A stretch of DNA of 20,215 nucleotides from a virus: positions 1 to 20,215 of IMG/VR virus record IMGVR_UViG_3300035698_002450; one strand, 5' to 3'. The translations under genes and the position numbers were made by a program. This document shows positions 850 to 20,215 of the stretch, one piece after another. The notes under the pieces were generated by a model. The model saw only the letters and a list, made by a program, of their open reading frames with translations. It was not told where the DNA came from and made no database searches. Position 1 is the first letter of the stretch, and every line of letters starts with the position of its first letter.

Positions 850-1164
850 TTATTTTTTGCCAACTTTCCCGGCAAGATAATCATTGTATCTTTTGAGTAG
901 CTTTGTTCCTGGTTTCCGCATAGTCAACTTCGTCTTGCGCACGCGGGCACCTTTATGTTGACGTGCAGATATTTTACCCTGCCGGACTCTCTTGGGGTCT
1001 TTCTGGATAGCACACTTTGAAGGCTCTGTAACCATTCTACCCTTTCTGCTACCAAAGGTGCAGCGATACTTCATCTTAAAGCTCCTGCCGTCACGCTTCA
1101 TTTGGCGGACGGCAGGAGATTCAGTCAGTAGCTCTTCATCTTCAAATAACTCTTCCAGGGTCAT
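850..1164 (-). CDS. small basic protein with an acidic, protease-cleavable leader; probable head-internal protein
   Basis: The protein has 104 residues in two very different parts. Residues 1-15 are acidic (MTLEELFEDEELLTE). From residue 16 on it is strongly basic, rich in Lys and Arg, with a conserved-looking RCTFGSRKGR segment (34-43) and a second Cys at 51. The junction L13-T14-E15|S16 fits the (I/L)-x-E|(A/G/S) site of the T4 gp21 protease. The leader resembles that of T4 Alt, which is also acidic and removed. I infer a late protein that is processed in the prohead and then binds DNA or the capsid wall. Start ATG 1164 overlaps the previous gene's TGA in an ATGA, so translation is coupled. 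AGGTGA lies about 10 bases upstream. Confidence 0.8.
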   Translation of the reverse strand: MTLEELFEDEELLTESPAVRQMKRDGRSFKMKYRCTFGSRKGRMVTEPSKCAIQKDPKRVRQGKISARQHKGARVRKTKLTMRKPGTKLLKRYNDYLAGKVGKK

Positions 1165-2519
1165 AGGTTTGCATCACCTAGATCATCTGCTGCTTTTTTT
1201 GCTTCTTTCTGCTTATATCGGATCATGGAACTGGCTTTGCGCATCTTTGCCGTAAGTTCCGCTAACGCTAACCGACGCTGTTCCCCTTTAAGCGCAGCTT
1301 TAGCTGGGTCATCATCGGGGGATGCTGCATATTTCTGGTTAATCATTGTACGCTGTCTGGCTAATGCTTCTGGAGTGTCGAACTCATCCTCAAAAATGGC
1401 AGCTCTCAAAAAGCTACCTTCATATCGGCTACCCATTGAGTTGGCCTTTTCTGCCTTGTACTTGGCGATGTTAGCAATTCGCTTGGATTCCTTCTCTCTA
1501 TCCTTATTCTGTTGCATTTCGGATTCGATGCGATGCAACTCCTCTTCCTTTGACAATGCTGATCGTTGAGCACGCTCTGCATACTCTGCTTGAGATGCCT
1601 TAGCCTTCTCAGCTTCTGCCTCTGCCTTAGCCTTTTCGGCTTCCGCATTAGCTTTAAGCATTGCGAGAATGGATGTCAATAGACTGGTTTCTGAAGTGTC
1701 ACTCTCTACCTCGTCCGGGATACCATCTAGATCTTCATCATCTAGATCTTCATCCCCATCGTCGAACTCATCGCCAAGGTCCAGGTCCTCACCTTCACCG
1801 CCCATGTCACCACCAAGATCCATATCACCTTCGCCACCGAAATCATCACCCATACCATCGTCCATACCAACTGCATTAGGGTCTAATGGATTTTCCGGAA
1901 CTTGGCCTGGATTATTATTCTTTTTACCATCTGTTTCATAGGTACTGTTACCTGGAATTTTTGGAAACTGTAGATCCAAGATATTGAAATTGTCCTTGAT
2001 CATAGCAATAAGATCTACAAGACCCTGCTTGTTCTTGAAGTCCTTGAATTCCTTATTTTCATATTCTAGCTGATTCATGGTCTCTTTAACGAAATCTATG
2101 AATTTAGCTTCATCCTCTTTAGCCACTGTGATCTTCATCATGTTTCCCTCTTCATCCTCAATACCGTACGAGACTGAATTAGTTTTCGTTCCAGTAGAAG
2201 CCTGCTGGGTTGATCGTAGTGCTGCCAGTGCTGTGTTGATGTCATAGTTTTCTGAAACCTTACCACCAAACACTGGGACAAAGCGTTTGAACATGTTGCT
2301 CAATCGCTTTCTCTTTTTAGCGGCTAGTGCCTTCTTGGCTATAGCTATCTGCTCTTTGGTGCTCTTAACTTTAGCAGCATCCTTGACATGTGTGTTGGGG
2401 GTCTCCCTCCAGGTTCTTTCGGCAGTACGCAAGTCATTGCGACCATTTCCTGGGTTAGCCGCTATGTGTGATGCCGAAATAGTGCCACCAATATCTTCGA
2501 TTACTGTTGCAAGTTTCAT
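1161..2519 (-). CDS. unknown late structural protein with acidic Gly/Asp stretch and coiled coil
   Basis: I do not recognise a family for this 452-residue protein. Residues 50-85 are basic (KKALAAKKRKRL). Residues 218-275 form a low-complexity run of Asp, Glu and Gly. Residues 280-360 are an Ala/Glu/Lys helix of coiled-coil type, and the C-terminus is again helical and charged. The composition and its place after gp4 suggest a prohead core, scaffold or head-associated role, but this is inference. The start ATG at 2519 is supported by AGAGAG about 8 bases upstream and by a late promoter element GATAAATA at 2541-2548. It is coupled to the 104-residue protein by a 4-base overlap. A V-I-E|D near residue 8 only weakly resembles a gp21 site. 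Confidence 0.8.
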   Translation of the reverse strand: MKLATVIEDIGGTISASHIAANPGNGRNDLRTAERTWRETPNTHVKDAAKVKSTKEQIAIAKKALAAKKRKRLSNMFKRFVPVFGGKVSENYDINTALAALRSTQQASTGTKTNSVSYGIEDEEGNMMKITVAKEDEAKFIDFVKETMNQLEYENKEFKDFKNKQGLVDLIAMIKDNFNILDLQFPKIPGNSTYETDGKKNNNPGQVPENPLDPNAVGMDDGMGDDFGGEGDMDLGGDMGGEGEDLDLGDEFDDGDEDLDDEDLDGIPDEVESDTSETSLLTSILAMLKANAEAEKAKAEAEAEKAKASQAEYAERAQRSALSKEEELHRIESEMQQNKDREKESKRIANIAKYKAEKANSMGSRYEGSFLRAAIFEDEFDTPEALARQRTMINQKYAASPDDDPAKAALKGEQRRLALAELTAKMRKASSMIRYKQKEAKKAADDLGDANL

Positions 2520-5008: not shown

Positions 5009-5716
5009 ATGTCAAATTTTGTAAGTTTTTTAAAAAAAACCATCACGGAAGAATCTGGTGGGAAATCGCAGGTGGTTGTTGAGAAGCTCCTCACCCAATT
5101 AGATACTACCCATATAGAGGAATATCCAAATGCGTACAGCATTAATGTGGGTGATGTACTTAAACAGACTAAACTCAAGCAATGTACCGTGTTAGTTATT
5201 GTTGGTGGTGGTGCCCCTCGTGTAGGCTCGAAGGATGGTGGAAGGGTTCTGGTAATTCCAGTCGCAGAAAAGCCGCCACGACTAGAGATAGATTCCCTAT
5301 TGGGCAAGCCAGAGTATTACAAATTTTTGGTGGACAATATACTGGCTGGGGTGGTTTCTGGACCTAGTGACAGTATCTACCCCGAAGAAAAGAGAAGTGC
5401 AATCAACACCCCCGAAGAATTTGAGAAATTTTATTCCGAGTGTGCACCAAAATTGAGCGCGTACAAGAAGGAGTATTTGGATGCTGTAGGACATGCCGAC
5501 TCAACCTCAAAGGAGAGTGAGCATCGTATGGGTGGTGATTTTGGGGATATGGCCAAATCACATGTTGCCAAGGAATACACCGGCTCTGTGTCACAGTTGC
5601 TTAAATATTTGGAGAAAGACCCCGGCATTAAGGCAAAGATAGCACTACTTGATAAAACCTTTTTAGCTAAGTTCAAAGCGCGGTTGGACTCCTTCTTCAC
5701 CACCTTGACGCATTAA
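5009..5716 (+). CDS. unknown late protein with capsid-targeting-like leader; possible internal head protein
   Basis: This 235-residue protein does not belong to a family I recognise. Its first residues, MSNFVSFLKKTITE, share the aromatic-4, Phe-7, aliphatic-8 pattern of the T4 capsid-targeting leader MKTYQEFIAE. I12-T13-E14 could be a gp21 cleavage site, though the next residue is Glu, not Ala or Gly. A hydrophobic strand with a GGG turn follows (61-69), then basic loops and Lys-rich helices to the end. It is the only plus-strand gene in the structural region and has its own late promoter and a terminator-like hairpin after the stop. No strong ribosome site precedes the ATG at 5009. T4 internal proteins are also late, separate genes, which fits, but the role is inference. 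Confidence 0.75.
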   Translation: MSNFVSFLKKTITEESGGKSQVVVEKLLTQLDTTHIEEYPNAYSINVGDVLKQTKLKQCTVLVIVGGGAPRVGSKDGGRVLVIPVAEKPPRLEIDSLLGKPEYYKFLVDNILAGVVSGPSDSIYPEEKRSAINTPEEFEKFYSECAPKLSAYKKEYLDAVGHADSTSKESEHRMGGDFGDMAKSHVAKEYTGSVSQLLKYLEKDPGIKAKIALLDKTFLAKFKARLDSFFTTLTH

Positions 5717-5760: not shown

Positions 5761-6387
5761 TTACCATTTCCTATTCAGGAATGTGTGAATAGATTTGACA
5801 AAGAATTTCTGTGCAGAAGGATCTTGTTTAATCAGTTCGGACAGCTTAATAGCCTCTCTACCATGCTGGTCATGCCCCATAGCTTCCAGTATTGGGGTTG
5901 GGTATGCACCCGGTGCCGATGGTGTGGCAACTAAGTCAGCAGTCACGAACACGAAGCCCGTCACAATACCATTCTCTGATAGGTTTCCCGCACCTCTGGA
6001 AGAGATACCGAAACGTACCTTACTTCTGGCCAATTCCTGTGAAATCAAACCCGTAGGGGTATTCAGAAGTTCAACCGTACCATTTGCATTGTTACCTTCC
6101 ATCTTAATGTCTCGGATTACATGTGATACTCGGTCCATGTTTATCTTCAACTTATCTGGATGGTCCAACTCCCCAAATATACCATTGTTCTCCTTAATCA
6201 TACCAACCGCAGTGTTAACCGCATTGGTCATCTCATTGAGGGGGTACACTCGGTTATTTCGATTGGCCAGTTCTGCCTGCATGAGGGTGCCACGCAACTT
6301 CCACGTGCGCTCCCCGTGTGACCCATCATACGCCTCTACGAGGACATTACTTTGAGTAGGCGTTAGTTCTTGACTTAGGAATTCCAT
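5761..6387 (-). CDS. 21: prohead protease, T4 gp21 family
   Basis: This 208-residue protein matches gp21 (212 residues in T4) in length and motifs. These are MQAELANRNNRVYP (36-49), the catalytic-His motif FGELDHP with H76, the catalytic-Ser motif GISSRG with S129/S130, and a third conserved region ADLVATPSAPGA (150-161) with D151. It is a serine protease of the herpesvirus-protease-like class that cleaves scaffold and leader peptides inside the prohead. L16-V17-E18|A19 fits its own cleavage rule and may be a self-processing site. The ATG at 6387 overlaps the upstream gene by 13 bases, with AGAGGA ahead of it. It is the last gene of the portal-core-protease operon, followed by a terminator. 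Confidence 0.93.
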   Translation of the reverse strand: MEFLSQELTPTQSNVLVEAYDGSHGERTWKLRGTLMQAELANRNNRVYPLNEMTNAVNTAVGMIKENNGIFGELDHPDKLKINMDRVSHVIRDIKMEGNNANGTVELLNTPTGLISQELARSKVRFGISSRGAGNLSENGIVTGFVFVTADLVATPSAPGAYPTPILEAMGHDQHGREAIKLSELIKQDPSAQKFFVKSIHTFLNRKW

Positions 6388-16162: not shown

Positions 16163-17785
16163 TTATTGAATGCCGTCTAGCCACCACTTCGGCAATGCGT
16201 ACTTCATTCGCTTATATAGTGGCCCGAATGACGAATCTAAGATGTATGTGATGCCCCAATCGTCCGGACCCCTAACTACCCTACCAGATCCCTGGATAAT
16301 CGATCTGAGGGCCTGTAGGTTGTACCAGGACGCTGACATCTGTTGACGCTTCTTAACCCAGGCATCGCCCAGGAATGGAAACGGCACCTTGACGAAAATA
16401 TTGAACCGCGCTAGGTCATCCTTAAGGTCAAGCCCCTCAGTCAGGGACGGGCTAATAAGAACCATAGGTTCCTTGCCCTCATTAGCCATGAATATCTCGA
16501 TGGCATCCTCTCTACTTAACGTGTCTCGGTTTGGGTCTGGTGTATGGGAGATTATCCGATGTGGCACTTTTCCCTGCAACTCAGCTTCCAGCCACTTGGC
16601 TACAGCAAATGACCCAGTGTGGATTATTCCACAATCCTCCTTATGGGACTTGTGAATATCTAACACAGCTTTTGGCATTTTACTTAAGTTGGTTGCATTA
16701 TCTGGGCTGTTCCAGCCATACGTCATCTTGGTAGTAGGGATGAAAAACACTGGACGATTCGCGACATTAAACTCGCTATCTAGCGATATGAATTTAGTAT
16801 CATCCGGGTTTATCCCTAAGTCATTACAGAATTCGTTTTTACCTAGAATGGTGCTGGACATGTACAGCAATTTGTTGGTGCCCATTGGCTCTACATATGA
16901 CTTGAATGGCTTTCCACCAGTGAGCAGCTTGAGTTTCTGGCTTACAGCATCGGTAGTCAACACATACTCCACCTCCACCACTTCCATGGGTGGGAATAGG
17001 ATTTCATCTAACACGTCATTATAGCGACTCAGATTTGCGTGCTTTGCTAATACGTCCTTATCCGACCCACGAATTGTGGCTCCATCACGCATTTTAGTTT
17101 GGATGGTAATTACCTGCCTGTTTAGGGAGAGCAGCATTTCCACCAGTGCGGGTTTGATATCTGATCGAAGCCAGTCTACCGCTTTATCCAGCGTCTGGAA
17201 GATCGGACGCTTCTTTGCGTACCCAATCTTCTTTAGTTGCTTGTCTGACCAAGTAATGGAGTCAAACTCCGTTAGGAACTCTTCCAGTCTGTGCGCTTCA
17301 TCCATAATTACTATGGATCGCGGGTCAAATAGACCAAATTTGAAGTACAGCAAAGCTAAGTGGTAGTTAAGCACTACATTGGGTGTTGCCTTGGCAGTTC
17401 TGGCAGCTATGTTGGCTGGACATCTTTGTCCACACTTGGGTTCCAATAGGTTACCTAGTTCGCAGTTAGTCCCTTTCATGGAGCACTTGTAGTTCACTCG
17501 GCCATACAGTGAGTATAGCTCTAGGTCACCTAGTGAGTCCTCGTACTGCTTTTGTAAGATTTTCTGTGGTGTCAATATGACTGAGTCGCCATATGGCTGT
17601 GCTATGTGCCTAGCCAGCGTTAGTCCGGCTGGTGACTTCCCTCCACCTACTGGCATCTCCAATAGAATATGCTTTACGTCTGGGTCAGGTAGGACCTCGT
17701 TGTCTAGCCACTCAAAAAATTTGATTTGTGATTTCCGTGGAGTCCTATCGGCTTCCTTCCAGGGCCATTGGTCTATTACTGCCAT
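16163..17785 (-). CDS. DinG/XPD-type superfamily 2 helicase with iron-sulfur cysteines
   Basis: This 540-residue protein has the full helicase set: a Q-motif-like RKSQIKFFEW (17-26), Walker A MPVGGGKSP (44-52), DEAH box IMDEAH (160-165), YMSSTI (308-313), SPSLTEGLDL (445-454) and motif VI QGSGRVVRGPDD (498-509). Between Walker A and DEAH lie four cysteines (C101, C108, C118, C122), the place of the 4Fe-4S cluster in XPD, Rad3 and DinG. Such enzymes move 5' to 3' and open forks, D-loops or R-loops. This would fit a role with gp46/gp47 in recombination-driven replication, but that is inference. It differs from T4 UvsW and Dda. The ATG at 17785 has AAGGA about 10 bases upstream and a sigma70-like extended -10 promoter, so early expression is likely. 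Confidence 0.9.
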   Translation of the reverse strand: MAVIDQWPWKEADRTPRKSQIKFFEWLDNEVLPDPDVKHILLEMPVGGGKSPAGLTLARHIAQPYGDSVILTPQKILQKQYEDSLGDLELYSLYGRVNYKCSMKGTNCELGNLLEPKCGQRCPANIAARTAKATPNVVLNYHLALLYFKFGLFDPRSIVIMDEAHRLEEFLTEFDSITWSDKQLKKIGYAKKRPIFQTLDKAVDWLRSDIKPALVEMLLSLNRQVITIQTKMRDGATIRGSDKDVLAKHANLSRYNDVLDEILFPPMEVVEVEYVLTTDAVSQKLKLLTGGKPFKSYVEPMGTNKLLYMSSTILGKNEFCNDLGINPDDTKFISLDSEFNVANRPVFFIPTTKMTYGWNSPDNATNLSKMPKAVLDIHKSHKEDCGIIHTGSFAVAKWLEAELQGKVPHRIISHTPDPNRDTLSREDAIEIFMANEGKEPMVLISPSLTEGLDLKDDLARFNIFVKVPFPFLGDAWVKKRQQMSASWYNLQALRSIIQGSGRVVRGPDDWGITYILDSSFGPLYKRMKYALPKWWLDGIQ

Positions 17786-17814
17786 CTGATTGCGTTCCTT
17801 AGATTTGACTTCAG

Positions 17815-17843
17815 ATCATACCATGTGCGACCCACTTCAGCAA
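17815..17843 (-). promoter_or_regulatory. sigma70-type extended -10 promoter of the helicase gene
   Basis: On the minus strand TTGCTG (17843-17838) is followed after 17 bases by TATGAT (17820-17815), preceded by TGG, which gives an extended -10. The helicase ATG at 17785 is 29 bases downstream. No late ATAAATA element is present here. Confidence 0.6.
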
Positions 17844-17873
17844 GTTAACAGGTAGACGGCGCTAGCTCTCTAC

Positions 17874-17887
17874 GCACCGACAGGTGC
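17874..17887. repeat. small hairpin GCACC/GGTGC
   Basis: A 5-bp perfect stem with a GACA loop, located 31 bases upstream of the helicase promoter. There is no strong T-run directly after it on either strand. Confidence 0.45.
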
Positions 17888-17943
17888 CTGACATTGGTCT
17901 TTTTCATTTGTTTTTGTTTAGTAGCAATTTAGTTTAGTTTTGC

Positions 17944-18010
17944 CAAAACTTCAATCTATAAAAAAGCTATTCGCTGCCGCTCATAGCTTTTTGTCTAGAT
18001 TGAAGTTTTG
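17944..18010. repeat. 67-base two-part hairpin, terminator-like
   Basis: The outer arms (17944-17958 and 17996-18010) are a perfect 15-bp match. After a small 2x3 internal loop the inner arms (17961-17970 and 17983-17992) are a perfect 10-bp match closing a 12-base loop. The inner stem ends in GCTTTTT on plus and GCTTTTTT on minus, so it can act as a terminator in both directions. A third copy of the outer sequence (AGTTTTG, 17936-17942) makes a tight palindrome with the left arm. It lies before the helicase promoter and may insulate the helicase gene from late transcription. Confidence 0.8.
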
Positions 18011-18212
18011 CTGTTTTATTGCTGTTTAGGTTAGGAGCTAAGCCTTTATGATAAGAGCGTATAGTAAGAGCAATGGCTTTCACAGTCTCCCCCCATTTAT
18101 TTTGATTGATAATGAAATCAACCAAGGTAAACATCGCAAACCAAAACCTAGTCCTAAAGCGCGACTGACAATATTCAGTCTGGAACCATAACGCATCTAC
18201 ATAGACCATCAT
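17967..18212 (-). CDS. doubtful 81-codon open frame
   Basis: The frame starts at ATG 18212 (a second ATG follows at once) and starts MMVYVDALWFQTEYCQ. No ribosome site is visible before it, and no promoter was found. Its middle is rich in Trp, Phe and Arg, its end is basic, and I recognise no family. The last codons run through one arm and the loop of the large hairpin, which is odd for a real gene if the hairpin is a terminator. It may be chance in a gene-poor stretch. It is listed because nothing else fills 18010-18212. Confidence 0.3.
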   Translation of the reverse strand: MMVYVDALWFQTEYCQSRFRTRFWFAMFTLVDFIINQNKWGETVKAIALTIRSYHKGLAPNLNSNKTAKLQSRQKAMSGSE

Positions 18213-18251
18213 GTAGTGTCGAGGAATCAGCAGCTCACTGTTCCGCCCTTT

Positions 18252-18527
18252 TCAATGGGTCGAGATAAGTAGCGAATCCAGCTTGTAAGATTTCGCAAGC
18301 CACTTACCCCCCATAAAGACCTTTGGGTTACTACGAGTGGTAATTAGCTCTTCCCACTCAACCCGTCCGACATCGACCAGTGGGTCTCCGTACAGCCTCT
18401 CCAAGTTGACTAATTTTTTAATAACATCATCCACTATACGTGATAATGGATGGTTTGTAAAGGGGTATTTTCTAAGTTTTTTGGTTGAACACCTTCTGTG
18501 CAGCTTTCGGATCGATCCGGGGGCCAC
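18252..18527 (-). CDS. small unknown protein overlapping the end of the 401-residue gene
   Basis: A frame of up to 91 codons starts at GTG 18527 and shares 56 bases with the end of the 401-residue gene. A later GTG at 18434 would give about 60 residues with no overlap. Neither has a clear ribosome site, so translation by coupling is likely. The part after 18434 looks protein-like: a helix DDVIKKLVNLERLYGDPLVD is followed by VEWEELI and a basic end with KVFMGGKWLAKSYKLD. I recognise no family. It would be the last gene of the late transcript that starts at 19703. Confidence 0.5.
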   Translation of the reverse strand: MAPGSIRKLHRRCSTKKLRKYPFTNHPLSRIVDDVIKKLVNLERLYGDPLVDVGRVEWEELITTRSNPKVFMGGKWLAKSYKLDSLLISTH

Positions 18528-19677
18528 TAGGTAGTTGATTCAACACCCCGAACCCAACATCGGTAACCATAGTGCTATTATGCTCTACCATACCAAAATA
18601 TCGCAAATTATCAAGATAGGCACTTGGCAACCGCTTGTTGAGGGGATCGGATCTATGCCACCCCTTTGATTGATTGTCTATCGCGTGTAAGGCATCAACA
18701 CTTTTACCAAACGCTCCCCCCTTCTTATACTCAGTCAATGCCTTGCTGATAGAGGGTTGAAGATCTACATCATCGCGAGGATCGTAGTTTCTATCAGCGC
18801 TCGATAGGGCCACGCCAACTTTCGCTGTAACAGTGTCAGCAATATTCTTGTTAGCCCGTCTGAGCATCTGAAACGGATGTCTCTGCGTAAATTTCAGTAA
18901 GTATCCAATTTCATCTACATTGAGTAGATGATGCTCGGATATAAGGTGTTCATCCTGTAGAACCTCAAAATCTAGTGGGTTTGTGTTTCGGAAGTCATCG
19001 ACCTGTGCCATATACCCACGCTTTTTCCCGTATTTTTTTAGTAGAGTTTTTAGAATGGAAAGGCTACTGCTAGACAATTCCGTATACACACTAAGATAGT
19101 GCGCGTCGGTGTGGTCAAGGTTGGCTCGCCATTTCTGGTATCTTTCATCGTCTAGGCCATTAGTGACATCATTTTGGATTACAGTGTCCCAGGTGTCAAA
19201 GGATGGTGGTGAACCACCAGGTGTAGTGATTACCCCATTGAATAGTGCCGTACTAAAAGCTGATCCTTGAGCAGTAATTTTGAGTAGTTTTCGATGGGTT
19301 TCTCTGGTATGAAATCCAGGCTCCACCAACCTATATGCCATGGCGATGGGTACTATAACCCGCTGCAGTTTGGTGATTTTTGTATCTTTCCCATCCGCCA
19401 GCATTTTTCCCCTACCCTCAATGTTGTCATAGTACTGATTAGCATTGGCCCCACCAGTACCTTTACCGTCACTACTCTTTCCACTGCCTTGACCGAATAT
19501 ATTTTGGGCAAGTTTTCGAGGTGACAGGAAAAACTCTTTATCATTCTCTAGCTGTGAAAAAACGGCACTCATCATTTTTTTGTAGATGGTAGCATAGTGT
19601 TGTTTCTTGCTATGGGTTAGCTGACGCTTTGATGTCTGCTTTGGACCTTCCATCAAAAATTGTAAAAAACTTGCCAT
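18472..19677 (-). CDS. unknown 401-residue late protein with T4-like capsid-targeting leader; probable internal head protein
   Basis: The first ten residues MASFLQFLME, followed by Gly, align position by position with the T4 internal-protein leader MKTYQEFIAE|A: aromatic at 4, Phe at 7, aliphatic at 8, Glu at 10. L8-M9-E10|G11 fits the gp21 cleavage rule. I infer that the protein is packed in the prohead, trimmed by the protease and perhaps injected. The mature part is basic near the start (KQTSKRQLTHSKK, 13-25) and has a Gly/Ser linker at 62-78. It ends in a possible winged-helix (about 346-382: YLDNLRYFGMVEH, then TDVGFGVLNQL), which could bind DNA. I know no family for the whole. ATG 19677 has GAAGGT upstream and a late promoter element at 19703-19710. 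Confidence 0.8.
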   Translation of the reverse strand: MASFLQFLMEGPKQTSKRQLTHSKKQHYATIYKKMMSAVFSQLENDKEFFLSPRKLAQNIFGQGSGKSSDGKGTGGANANQYYDNIEGRGKMLADGKDTKITKLQRVIVPIAMAYRLVEPGFHTRETHRKLLKITAQGSAFSTALFNGVITTPGGSPPSFDTWDTVIQNDVTNGLDDERYQKWRANLDHTDAHYLSVYTELSSSSLSILKTLLKKYGKKRGYMAQVDDFRNTNPLDFEVLQDEHLISEHHLLNVDEIGYLLKFTQRHPFQMLRRANKNIADTVTAKVGVALSSADRNYDPRDDVDLQPSISKALTEYKKGGAFGKSVDALHAIDNQSKGWHRSDPLNKRLPSAYLDNLRYFGMVEHNSTMVTDVGFGVLNQLPSGPRIDPKAAQKVFNQKT

Positions 19678-19702
19678 GGGTATTACCTTCAGTATTAACC
19701 TT

Positions 19703-19710
19703 TATTTATT
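19703..19710 (-). promoter_or_regulatory. late promoter element AATAAATA of the 401-residue gene
   Basis: The minus strand reads AATAAATA 25 bases before the ATG at 19677. It overlaps the stop codon of the RuvC-like gene. Confidence 0.7.
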
Positions 19711-20215
19711 GTGCAATACCACCCTGAGCGATTTTTGCCATGGTATAGAGTATTTGTGCATCATTTATGTCTTCGAGTGGTTTGGGAACACTGGCCATCC
19801 CCTCCAGTTCTTCCCGATTGTCCATAAGGATTTTCATCCAGGAACCGTTACTACATAAGGTGGGTGAGTCATATAGAGCAGTAAGCATATCGGTCTTGGT
19901 AAAGCTCCCACCCGCCTTTCCCGCATTGTTGCGATACTCCACCTTCTTAACTTTGACTCCCTTGGTTATTGGGGGATAACAGAATTTCGCAGTCATAGCC
20001 TTGAGTTCTGACGGTGCAATTATCTTAAGACTGCAACCAATCTCTAGGAGTTTTGCTCGGAGGAGGGTACCAAAGCAAACCAAATCGAGTATAGGCCCAT
20101 GCTTTGAGGATTGGCTATATCCTTCTATATAGACTATGGTATCAGTGTACTTTTTTGCCGTTTGGATGGTTCTAACAATCTTAGTAGTAATGTTTCCATA
20201 GTGCTTCATCTTCGC
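19706..20215 (-). CDS. RuvC-like Holliday junction resolvase, N-terminus outside the window
   Basis: The visible frame has the RNase-H-like fold of RuvC-type resolvases without its first strand. It shows a helix of IVRTIQTAKK type, the second-acid strand IVYIEGYS (E29 counted from ATG 20209) and FGTLLRAKLLEIG. APSELKAMT (65-73), a Lys-rich loop with FTKTDML (103-109) and the C-terminal acid pair DINDAQIL (D147, D150) follow. The first catalytic Asp is missing because the frame continues in phase (GCG AAG) past the window edge. The Met at 20209 is therefore probably internal. Such enzymes cut branched DNA before packaging, the task of gp49 in T4, which is a different fold. A role in recombination or packaging is inferred. 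Confidence 0.75.
   Translation of the reverse strand, partial: AKMKHYGNITTKIVRTIQTAKKYTDTIVYIEGYSQSSKHGPILDLVCFGTLLRAKLLEIGCSLKIIAPSELKAMTAKFCYPPITKGVKVKKVEYRNNAGKAGGSFTKTDMLTALYDSPTLCSNGSWMKILMDNREELEGMASVPKPLEDINDAQILYTMAKIAQGGIAQ

What the first reader, a model, noticed from the sequence alone, without database searches (positions are those of the whole stretch)
18472..19677. A 401-residue unknown protein carries a T4-like capsid-targeting leader and may be an injected effector
Residues 1-11, MASFLQFLMEG, match the T4 internal-protein leader MKTYQEFIAE|A in length, aromatic-4, Phe-7, aliphatic-8 and Glu-10, and end in a gp21-type site (L-x-E|G). The same window encodes a gp21-type protease and gives this gene a late promoter element. 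T4 proteins with this leader (IPI-III) enter the host with DNA and can block its defences. At 401 residues this one is far larger than the T4 internal proteins and has no family I recognise.
Basis: partly seen in the sequence, partly recalled or inferred. Interest (0 to 1): 0.8.

Follow-up and report, generated by a model that had tools for sequence, protein, structure and literature searches.

The report
Head-targeted winged-helix protein of jumbo phages
A giant T4-like phage makes a late, probably DNA-binding protein with a short address tag that should send it inside the virus head for delivery into the next host cell; in one branch of its relatives the same tag has moved to the other end of the protein, which suggests that the tag is a real, portable signal.

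Summary
The leader is real. MASFLQFLME|G matches T4 IPII/IPIII position by position, follows an ATAAATA late element, and the window encodes a gp21-type protease. The protein looked like an orphan (no Pfam, PHROG, PDB or tblastn match), but synteny exposed its family: in 13 jumbo phages a fast-diverging late gene sits between a RuvC-like gene and a helicase. XacN1 (MRFVQYLIE|A) and RAS14 (MSFVQFLIE|N) carry the leader. In one clade the N-terminal leader is missing and an equivalent tag stands at the C-terminus (LSFKQFLIE, LSFKKYLIE), nearly identical to an N-terminal tag of another late protein in the same genome. No other late gene in the DNA fetched has a C-terminal tag. In the T4-like cyanophage S-CREM2, the only three ORFs with the strict leader were all found in virions by published mass spectrometry. 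The body is predicted, with modest confidence, to be two tandem winged helices. Best reading: a prohead-targeted, probably ejected DNA-binding protein. Head packaging is well supported indirectly; ejection and host target are inferred. The size is not unusual, since T4 Alt has 682 residues.

The parts
18472..19677 (-). 401-aa late protein, head-targeted tandem winged-helix family (subject of the finding)
   Evidence: orthologues in XacN1, RAS14, CM1 and IMG/VR loci L046, L047, L049, L050, L051, L056, L058, L060, L071, L072
19648..19677 (-). N-terminal capsid-targeting-type leader, residues 1-10 MASFLQFLME; predicted gp21 cut after Glu10 (L-M-E|G)
19703..19709 (-). late promoter element ATAAATA, 32 nt upstream of the ATG
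   Evidence: similar spacing in all family members
19686..19690 (-). GAAGG ribosome-binding site
19216..19614 (-). predicted first winged-helix domain, residues about 22-154
   Evidence: AlphaFold2 on an 11-sequence alignment; weak VIA-align matches to MarR-type repressors, Z 4-4.8; Pfam HTH_45 below cut-off in 5 of 11 members
18865..19140 (-). predicted second winged-helix domain, residues about 180-271 (best-predicted part, pLDDT 80-90)
   Evidence: the region of sequence homology to relatives
5761..6387 (-). gp21-type prohead protease, the presumed cleaving enzyme
5009..5716 (+). second leader-type late protein (MSNFVSFLKK...), divergent from the tail-tube gene; homologues in XacN1 (ORF352 MRFTSYLIE|T), RAS14 and CM1
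16163..17785 (-). helicase that marks the conserved neighbourhood
19706..20209 (-). RuvC-like resolvase gene, 5' end cut by the window edge; the other syntenic neighbour

Best explanation
This is a late, head-targeted internal protein of a jumbo T4-like phage of the XacN1/RAS14 kind. Step 1 (well supported): it is transcribed from a gp55-type late promoter while heads are being built. Step 2 (well supported, indirectly): the 10-residue amphipathic leader acts as a capsid-targeting sequence that binds the prohead core. Step 3 (inferred): the gp21-type protease cuts after LME-10, leaving a protein that starts at Gly11 inside the DNA-filled head. Step 4 (moderately supported): the body folds as two tandem winged helices and binds DNA. 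Step 5 (inferred): it leaves the head with the DNA and acts in the new host, on phage or host DNA, before early genes are made. The tag is a portable module: most relatives carry it at the N-terminus, one clade at the C-terminus.
For: Leader and T4 match. Protease. Late element at similar spacing in the window, XacN1, RAS14 and the IMG/VR orthologues. Synteny RuvC-like / this gene / helicase. Homology of the body: P0001 against L051 E 3.7e-10 in a 14-sequence comparison. Leaders in XacN1, RAS14, L056, L058, L060, L072, L046. C-terminal tags FKQFLIE, FKKYLIE, FKNYLIE, FKKYLIE in the clade without the leader; among late genes in all fetched loci only these four have a C-terminal tag; the clade is one branch of the helicase tree. 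The C-terminal tag SKSLSFKQFLIE is almost the N-terminal tag of another late protein of the same genome, MSKNLSFKNFLINE. S-CREM2: the only three strict-leader ORFs are virion proteins by mass spectrometry (PMC10665884). Winged helices. Literature on the T4 CTS: PMC5694885, PMC3012670.
Against: There is no mass spectrometry of this phage, and the XacN1 virion data are in a figure and supplement that could not be read. L051 has a tag at neither end. Some relatives lack the gene at this place (G003/L033), so it is dispensable in them. The structure model has mean pLDDT 56 with the last third unresolved, and the winged-helix matches are weak (Z below 5). Nothing shows ejection or a target.
Confidence: 0.6

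Rival explanations
1. It is a prohead core (scaffold) accessory protein of the gp67/gp68 kind: the tag binds it into the core, it helps head assembly, is cut by the protease and does not act in the host.
For: T4 core proteins gp22, gp67 and gp68 also carry leader-like or gp21-site N-termini; XacN1 ORF299, between portal and protease genes, has a similar leader SKFSEYLAE.
Against: The gene lies outside the head cluster, between a resolvase and a helicase gene; it is missing at this place in some relatives, diverges fast and has a winged-helix-like body; the core proteins of T4 are small and encoded next to gp21.
Confidence: 0.2
2. It is a packaged anti-defence protein of the IPI kind that inhibits a host nuclease or defence enzyme; the winged helices serve as a scaffold for that inhibition or shield DNA.
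For: T4 IPI works this way and T-even internal proteins keep only the CTS in common (PMC3012670); S-CREM2 packages a SAM hydrolase and a Cas9 with leader-like N-terminal segments.
Against: No similarity to any known inhibitor; the family has a conserved body and a conserved place, unlike the variable T-even internal proteins. The PADLOC library was not searched.
Confidence: 0.12
3. It is a late regulator or packaging factor that works only in the producing cell; the leader is an incidental amphipathic helix.
For: A winged-helix-like body and neighbours in DNA metabolism; five relatives lack the N-terminal leader.
Against: The tag reappears at the C-terminus in four of those five and matches tags of other late proteins of the same genomes, which is unlikely by chance.
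Confidence: 0.08

Closest known systems
T4 internal proteins IPI, IPII, IPIII (CTS propeptide, gp21-processed, ejected)
   Same: 10-residue leader with the same aromatic/hydrophobic/Glu spacing, gp21-type protease in the genome, late-type promoter element
   Different: Body unrelated in sequence, 401 aa, apparently tandem winged helices; a family at a conserved place instead of variable small proteins
T4 Alt (682-aa packaged ADP-ribosyltransferase)
   Same: Large leader-bearing head protein; shows that size is no obstacle
   Different: Leader MELITELFDE is less alike; no ADP-ribosyltransferase match here
XacN1 ORF314 (BBA65462.1) and RAS14 WAX21654.1
   Same: Same place between RuvC-like and helicase genes, same leader, same late element; linked by sequence through L056 and L051
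   Different: 346-351 aa; no direct BLAST match to the window protein outside the leader
Packaged enzymes of cyanophage S-CREM2 (SAM hydrolase, APH-like kinase, cytidylyltransferase)
   Same: Same strict leader motif, gp21-type protease, two of the three with ATAAATA upstream; found in virions by published mass spectrometry
   Different: Bodies are enzymes unrelated to this one
P1 DarB N-terminal capsid-targeting segment (PMC9024508)
   Same: N-terminal targeting of a host-acting protein to a phage head
   Different: Different phage type and a longer signal (more than 9, at most 30 residues); sequence likeness not tested

Membership tests
T4-type CTS-bearing internal head protein | short N-terminal leader ending in a gp21-type site ([LI]xE|) | tested here: met
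   MASFLQFLME|G aligned with T4 leaders; motif odds
T4-type CTS-bearing internal head protein | gp21-family prohead protease in the same genome | tested here: met
   5761-6387, Peptidase_S77 3.2e-18
T4-type CTS-bearing internal head protein | late promoter | tested here: met
   ATAAATA 32 nt upstream; conserved in orthologues
T4-type CTS-bearing internal head protein | leader conserved among homologues while the body varies | tested here: met
   7 of 12 other members have an N-terminal leader and 4 a C-terminal one; body identity to the window protein 12-21%. L051 has neither
T4-type CTS-bearing internal head protein | present inside the virion head | not testable with these tools
   XacN1 virion figure and supplement not readable; indirect support from S-CREM2
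T4-type CTS-bearing internal head protein | leader removed by the protease | not testable with these tools
   needs the mature N-terminus by mass spectrometry
T4-type CTS-bearing internal head protein | ejected with the DNA into the host | not testable with these tools
   none
winged-helix (wHTH) fold | three helices followed by a two-strand wing | tested here: inconclusive
   model shows the arrangement twice (second copy pLDDT 80-90); PDB matches to MarR/MntR-type proteins Z 4-4.8; HTH_45 best 4e-4, below the curated cut-off
T4 IPI-type nuclease inhibitor | sequence or fold likeness to IPI* | tested here: inconclusive
   no match of the window protein or the family profile among PDB sequences; fold not compared directly

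The most novel reading that the evidence does not exclude
Jumbo T4-like phages use a position-independent head-packaging tag: the same roughly 10-residue amphipathic motif targets cargo from either the N- or the C-terminus, and one orthologous cargo family, a tandem winged-helix protein delivered into the host with the DNA, switched ends in evolution. A C-terminal capsid-targeting tag was not described in the papers found and read here.
Probability: 0.5. Interest if true: 0.75.

Novelty: new variant of a known kind. Interest (0 to 1): 0.62.

Why it matters
If true, part of the packaged and ejected protein set of jumbo phages can be read from sequence (tag at either end plus late promoter), which opens many unannotated genes to testing as early host-takeover proteins. 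A DNA-binding protein delivered with the genome would act before any phage gene is expressed. A C-terminal tag would also widen the tools for loading proteins into phage heads and help show what the prohead core recognises.

Tried and rejected
Direct homology searches with the window protein (tblastn on phages, peptide-pattern scans of viral and genome contigs, PHROGs, Pfam, PDB) found nothing; only synteny through the helicase profile worked. AlphaFold2 on the single sequence was useless (pLDDT 33). hhalign of the window protein against the XacN1/RAS14 pair gave only E 0.14; homology rests on intermediate sequences. The idea that the size is unusual was dropped (Alt is 682 aa). L054/L077 (445 aa, MKIQNIFQLVEQTLIE) sits at the same place but could not be joined to the family by sequence (E 0.12-0.15). 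The top BFVD structural match A0A7D0KZ17 (E 1.5e-3, probability 1.00, 349 aa) has no name at hand. Rfam found no RNA in the window. No significant PDB match in Foldseek. PADLOC was not searched.

Full report
Setting. The window is a 20.2-kb IMG/VR virus fragment. Its portal is 45-46% identical to those of Xanthomonas phage XacN1 and Stenotrophomonas phages RAS14 and CM1, and its helicase 43-45%, so it comes from a jumbo T4-like phage. It encodes a gp21-type protease and, by my reading of the ORFs, gp20-, gp4-, gp19-, gp46-, gp47- and gp55-type genes.

The observation. The ORF at 18472-19677 (-) encodes 401 residues beginning MASFLQFLMEG. T4 N-termini read from the RefSeq record are IPII and IPIII MKTYQEFIAEA, IPI MKTFKEF, Alt MELITELFDED, gp24 MAKINELLRES and gp22 MLKEQLIAEA. 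A late element ATAAATA lies 32 nt before the ATG; the same element stands before several head and tail genes of the window. The helicase next door lacks it, and its XacN1 and RAS14 counterparts have sigma70-like upstream sequences instead.

Finding the family. Direct searches found no relative. But in XacN1 and RAS14 the gene between the RuvC-like gene and the helicase encodes a 346-351-aa protein with the leader MRFVQYLIE|A or MSFVQFLIE|N and the same late element. A profile of seven helicases then brought in 35 IMG/VR loci. In ten of them the same gap holds a 320-471-aa late gene that belongs to one family. All-against-all comparison joins these to each other, to XacN1/RAS14 (through L056, E about 1e-33 to 1e-40) and to the window protein (L051, E 3.7e-10; L047, 9e-8; L049, 2e-7). 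The E-values refer to a 14-sequence set, so they test chosen pairs and are not database searches. Identity to the window protein is 12-21%.

The tag moves. N-terminal leaders are seen in the window, XacN1, RAS14, L046 (MKRPLIE|A), L056 (MKLDLLLE|K), L058 (MITNFYLIE|S), L060 (MITRFFLIE|N) and L072 (MLTKFYRLNE|A); the last five are looser matches than the first three. Five relatives (L047, L049, L050, L051, L071) start directly with the body, MASxxEIYxxI or similar. Four of these end in ESKSLSFKQFLIEKIDK, ESKNLSFKKYLIEQQAS, HKDLSFKNYLIEEKSKHIDKRI and ESKNLSFKKYLIESN. In the genome of L047 another late protein begins MSKNLSFKNFLINE, and others MSFKTFLQE and MRSFKQYILNE. The chance of the strict motif in the last 24 residues is 0.1-0.3% from composition and 0.2-1.3% by shuffling. 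In the helicase tree the C-tagged phages form one group (support 93/91), sister to the untagged L051 (100/99), while N-tagged phages occupy the other branches. One shift from the N- to the C-terminus explains this; because the four are related, it counts as one event. L051 ends GRKSSFKDFLTR, without the Glu, and has no tag downstream.

Does the leader predict packaging? The T4-like cyanophage S-CREM2 has a published virion proteome of 52 proteins (PMC10665884). A six-frame scan of its genome with the strict motif in residues 2-15 finds exactly three ORFs: SAM hydrolase MKDFDSFLEE, APH-like kinase VKRFDAFLTE and cytidylyltransferase MKNFSSFLTEA. All three are in the virion list (3 of 3 with 52 of 219 detected, p = 0.013). 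Two more proteins of that list have looser versions: ORF13 MKDLHSFLTE, and a Cas9 with LRFASFMAEA near residues 17-26. In XacN1 and the IMG/VR genomes G014, G016 and G031, strict leaders go with late promoters (9 of 15 against 235 of 1,511, p = 1.2e-4). This fits the CTS described for T4 (PMC5694885; PMC3012670). In SPN3US, 13 of 14 head cleavage sites remove N-terminal propeptides, the exception being the protease itself (PMC10052503); no C-terminal targeting tag was described in the passages I read.

The body. AlphaFold2 on the 11-sequence alignment gives mean pLDDT 56, with residues 181-270 at about 80-90. Residues 22-154 and about 180-271 each show helices followed by a wing. Weak PDB alignments are dominated by winged-helix repressors (best Z 4.8; none significant in Foldseek), and Pfam HTH_45 matches five of eleven members below its cut-off. 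A tandem winged-helix, DNA-binding body is the best guess, not a proof.

Mechanism and limits. Late synthesis, tag-directed entry into the prohead core, cleavage after LME, packing among the DNA and ejection with it is the simplest course. The first two steps have comparative support; cleavage, ejection and function in the host are inferred from T4. The gene is absent from this place in G003, so it is an accessory there. The XacN1 virion was analysed by mass spectrometry (PMC5852040), but the figure and supplement that would say whether ORF314 is present could not be read.

Verdict. The effector claim is open. The unexpected gain is the end-switched tag.

Noticed in passing
window 5009-5716 (+): Second leader-type late gene (MSNFVSFLKKTITEESGG) divergent from the tail-tube gene; homologues XacN1 ORF352 MRFTSYLIE|T and, by position and N-terminus, G014/G016 MRSFKQYILNE / MQSFKAHLLNE.
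   Followed up: partly
window 1161-2519 (-): 452-aa late protein; likely counterparts in G014/G016 begin MSFKTFLQETA / MSFKKYLQETA followed by a shared GxIxAxxIAANP-like stretch; probably another head protein.
   Followed up: partly
L063 4174-4905, L066 4188-4922, L068 4127-4849, L074 524-1255, L090 15908-16651, L116 5507-6247: Family of 240-247-aa nucleotidyltransferases (phrog_36119), most with strong leaders (MLTFKQYLLEE, MATFTEFLIES); the S-CREM2 homologue ORF156 is in the virion proteome, so this may be a packaged nucleotidyltransferase.
   Followed up: partly
L145 7704-10313 (-), S-CREM2 ORF12: Phage Cas9 detected in virions carries a leader-like LRFASFMAEA near residues 17-26; possibly a packaged, ejected Cas9.
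   Followed up: no
L145 3837-5081 and 10579-12846 (-), S-CREM2 ORF6 and ORF14: Virion-packaged SAM hydrolase and APH-like kinase with strict leaders, which may explain how they enter the head.
   Followed up: partly
window 17786-18471: About 690 bp between the helicase and this gene without a long ORF, and similar gaps (600-820 bp) in XacN1, RAS14 and L051; the window copy has small leftward ORFs and a sigma70-like TTTACA-N17-TATAGT.
   Followed up: no
L023 9594-10046 (XacN1 ORF296), L024 23674-24048, L096 5439-5771, L121 6039-6386: Small late proteins MKIQNILSED / MKIKTLLEN, next to the protease gene in XacN1 and RAS14, with a single winged-helix-like stretch and an acidic tail.
   Followed up: no
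L051 4150-4185: Relative with a tag at neither end; its C-terminus SSFKDFLTR resembles a decayed tag.
   Followed up: partly
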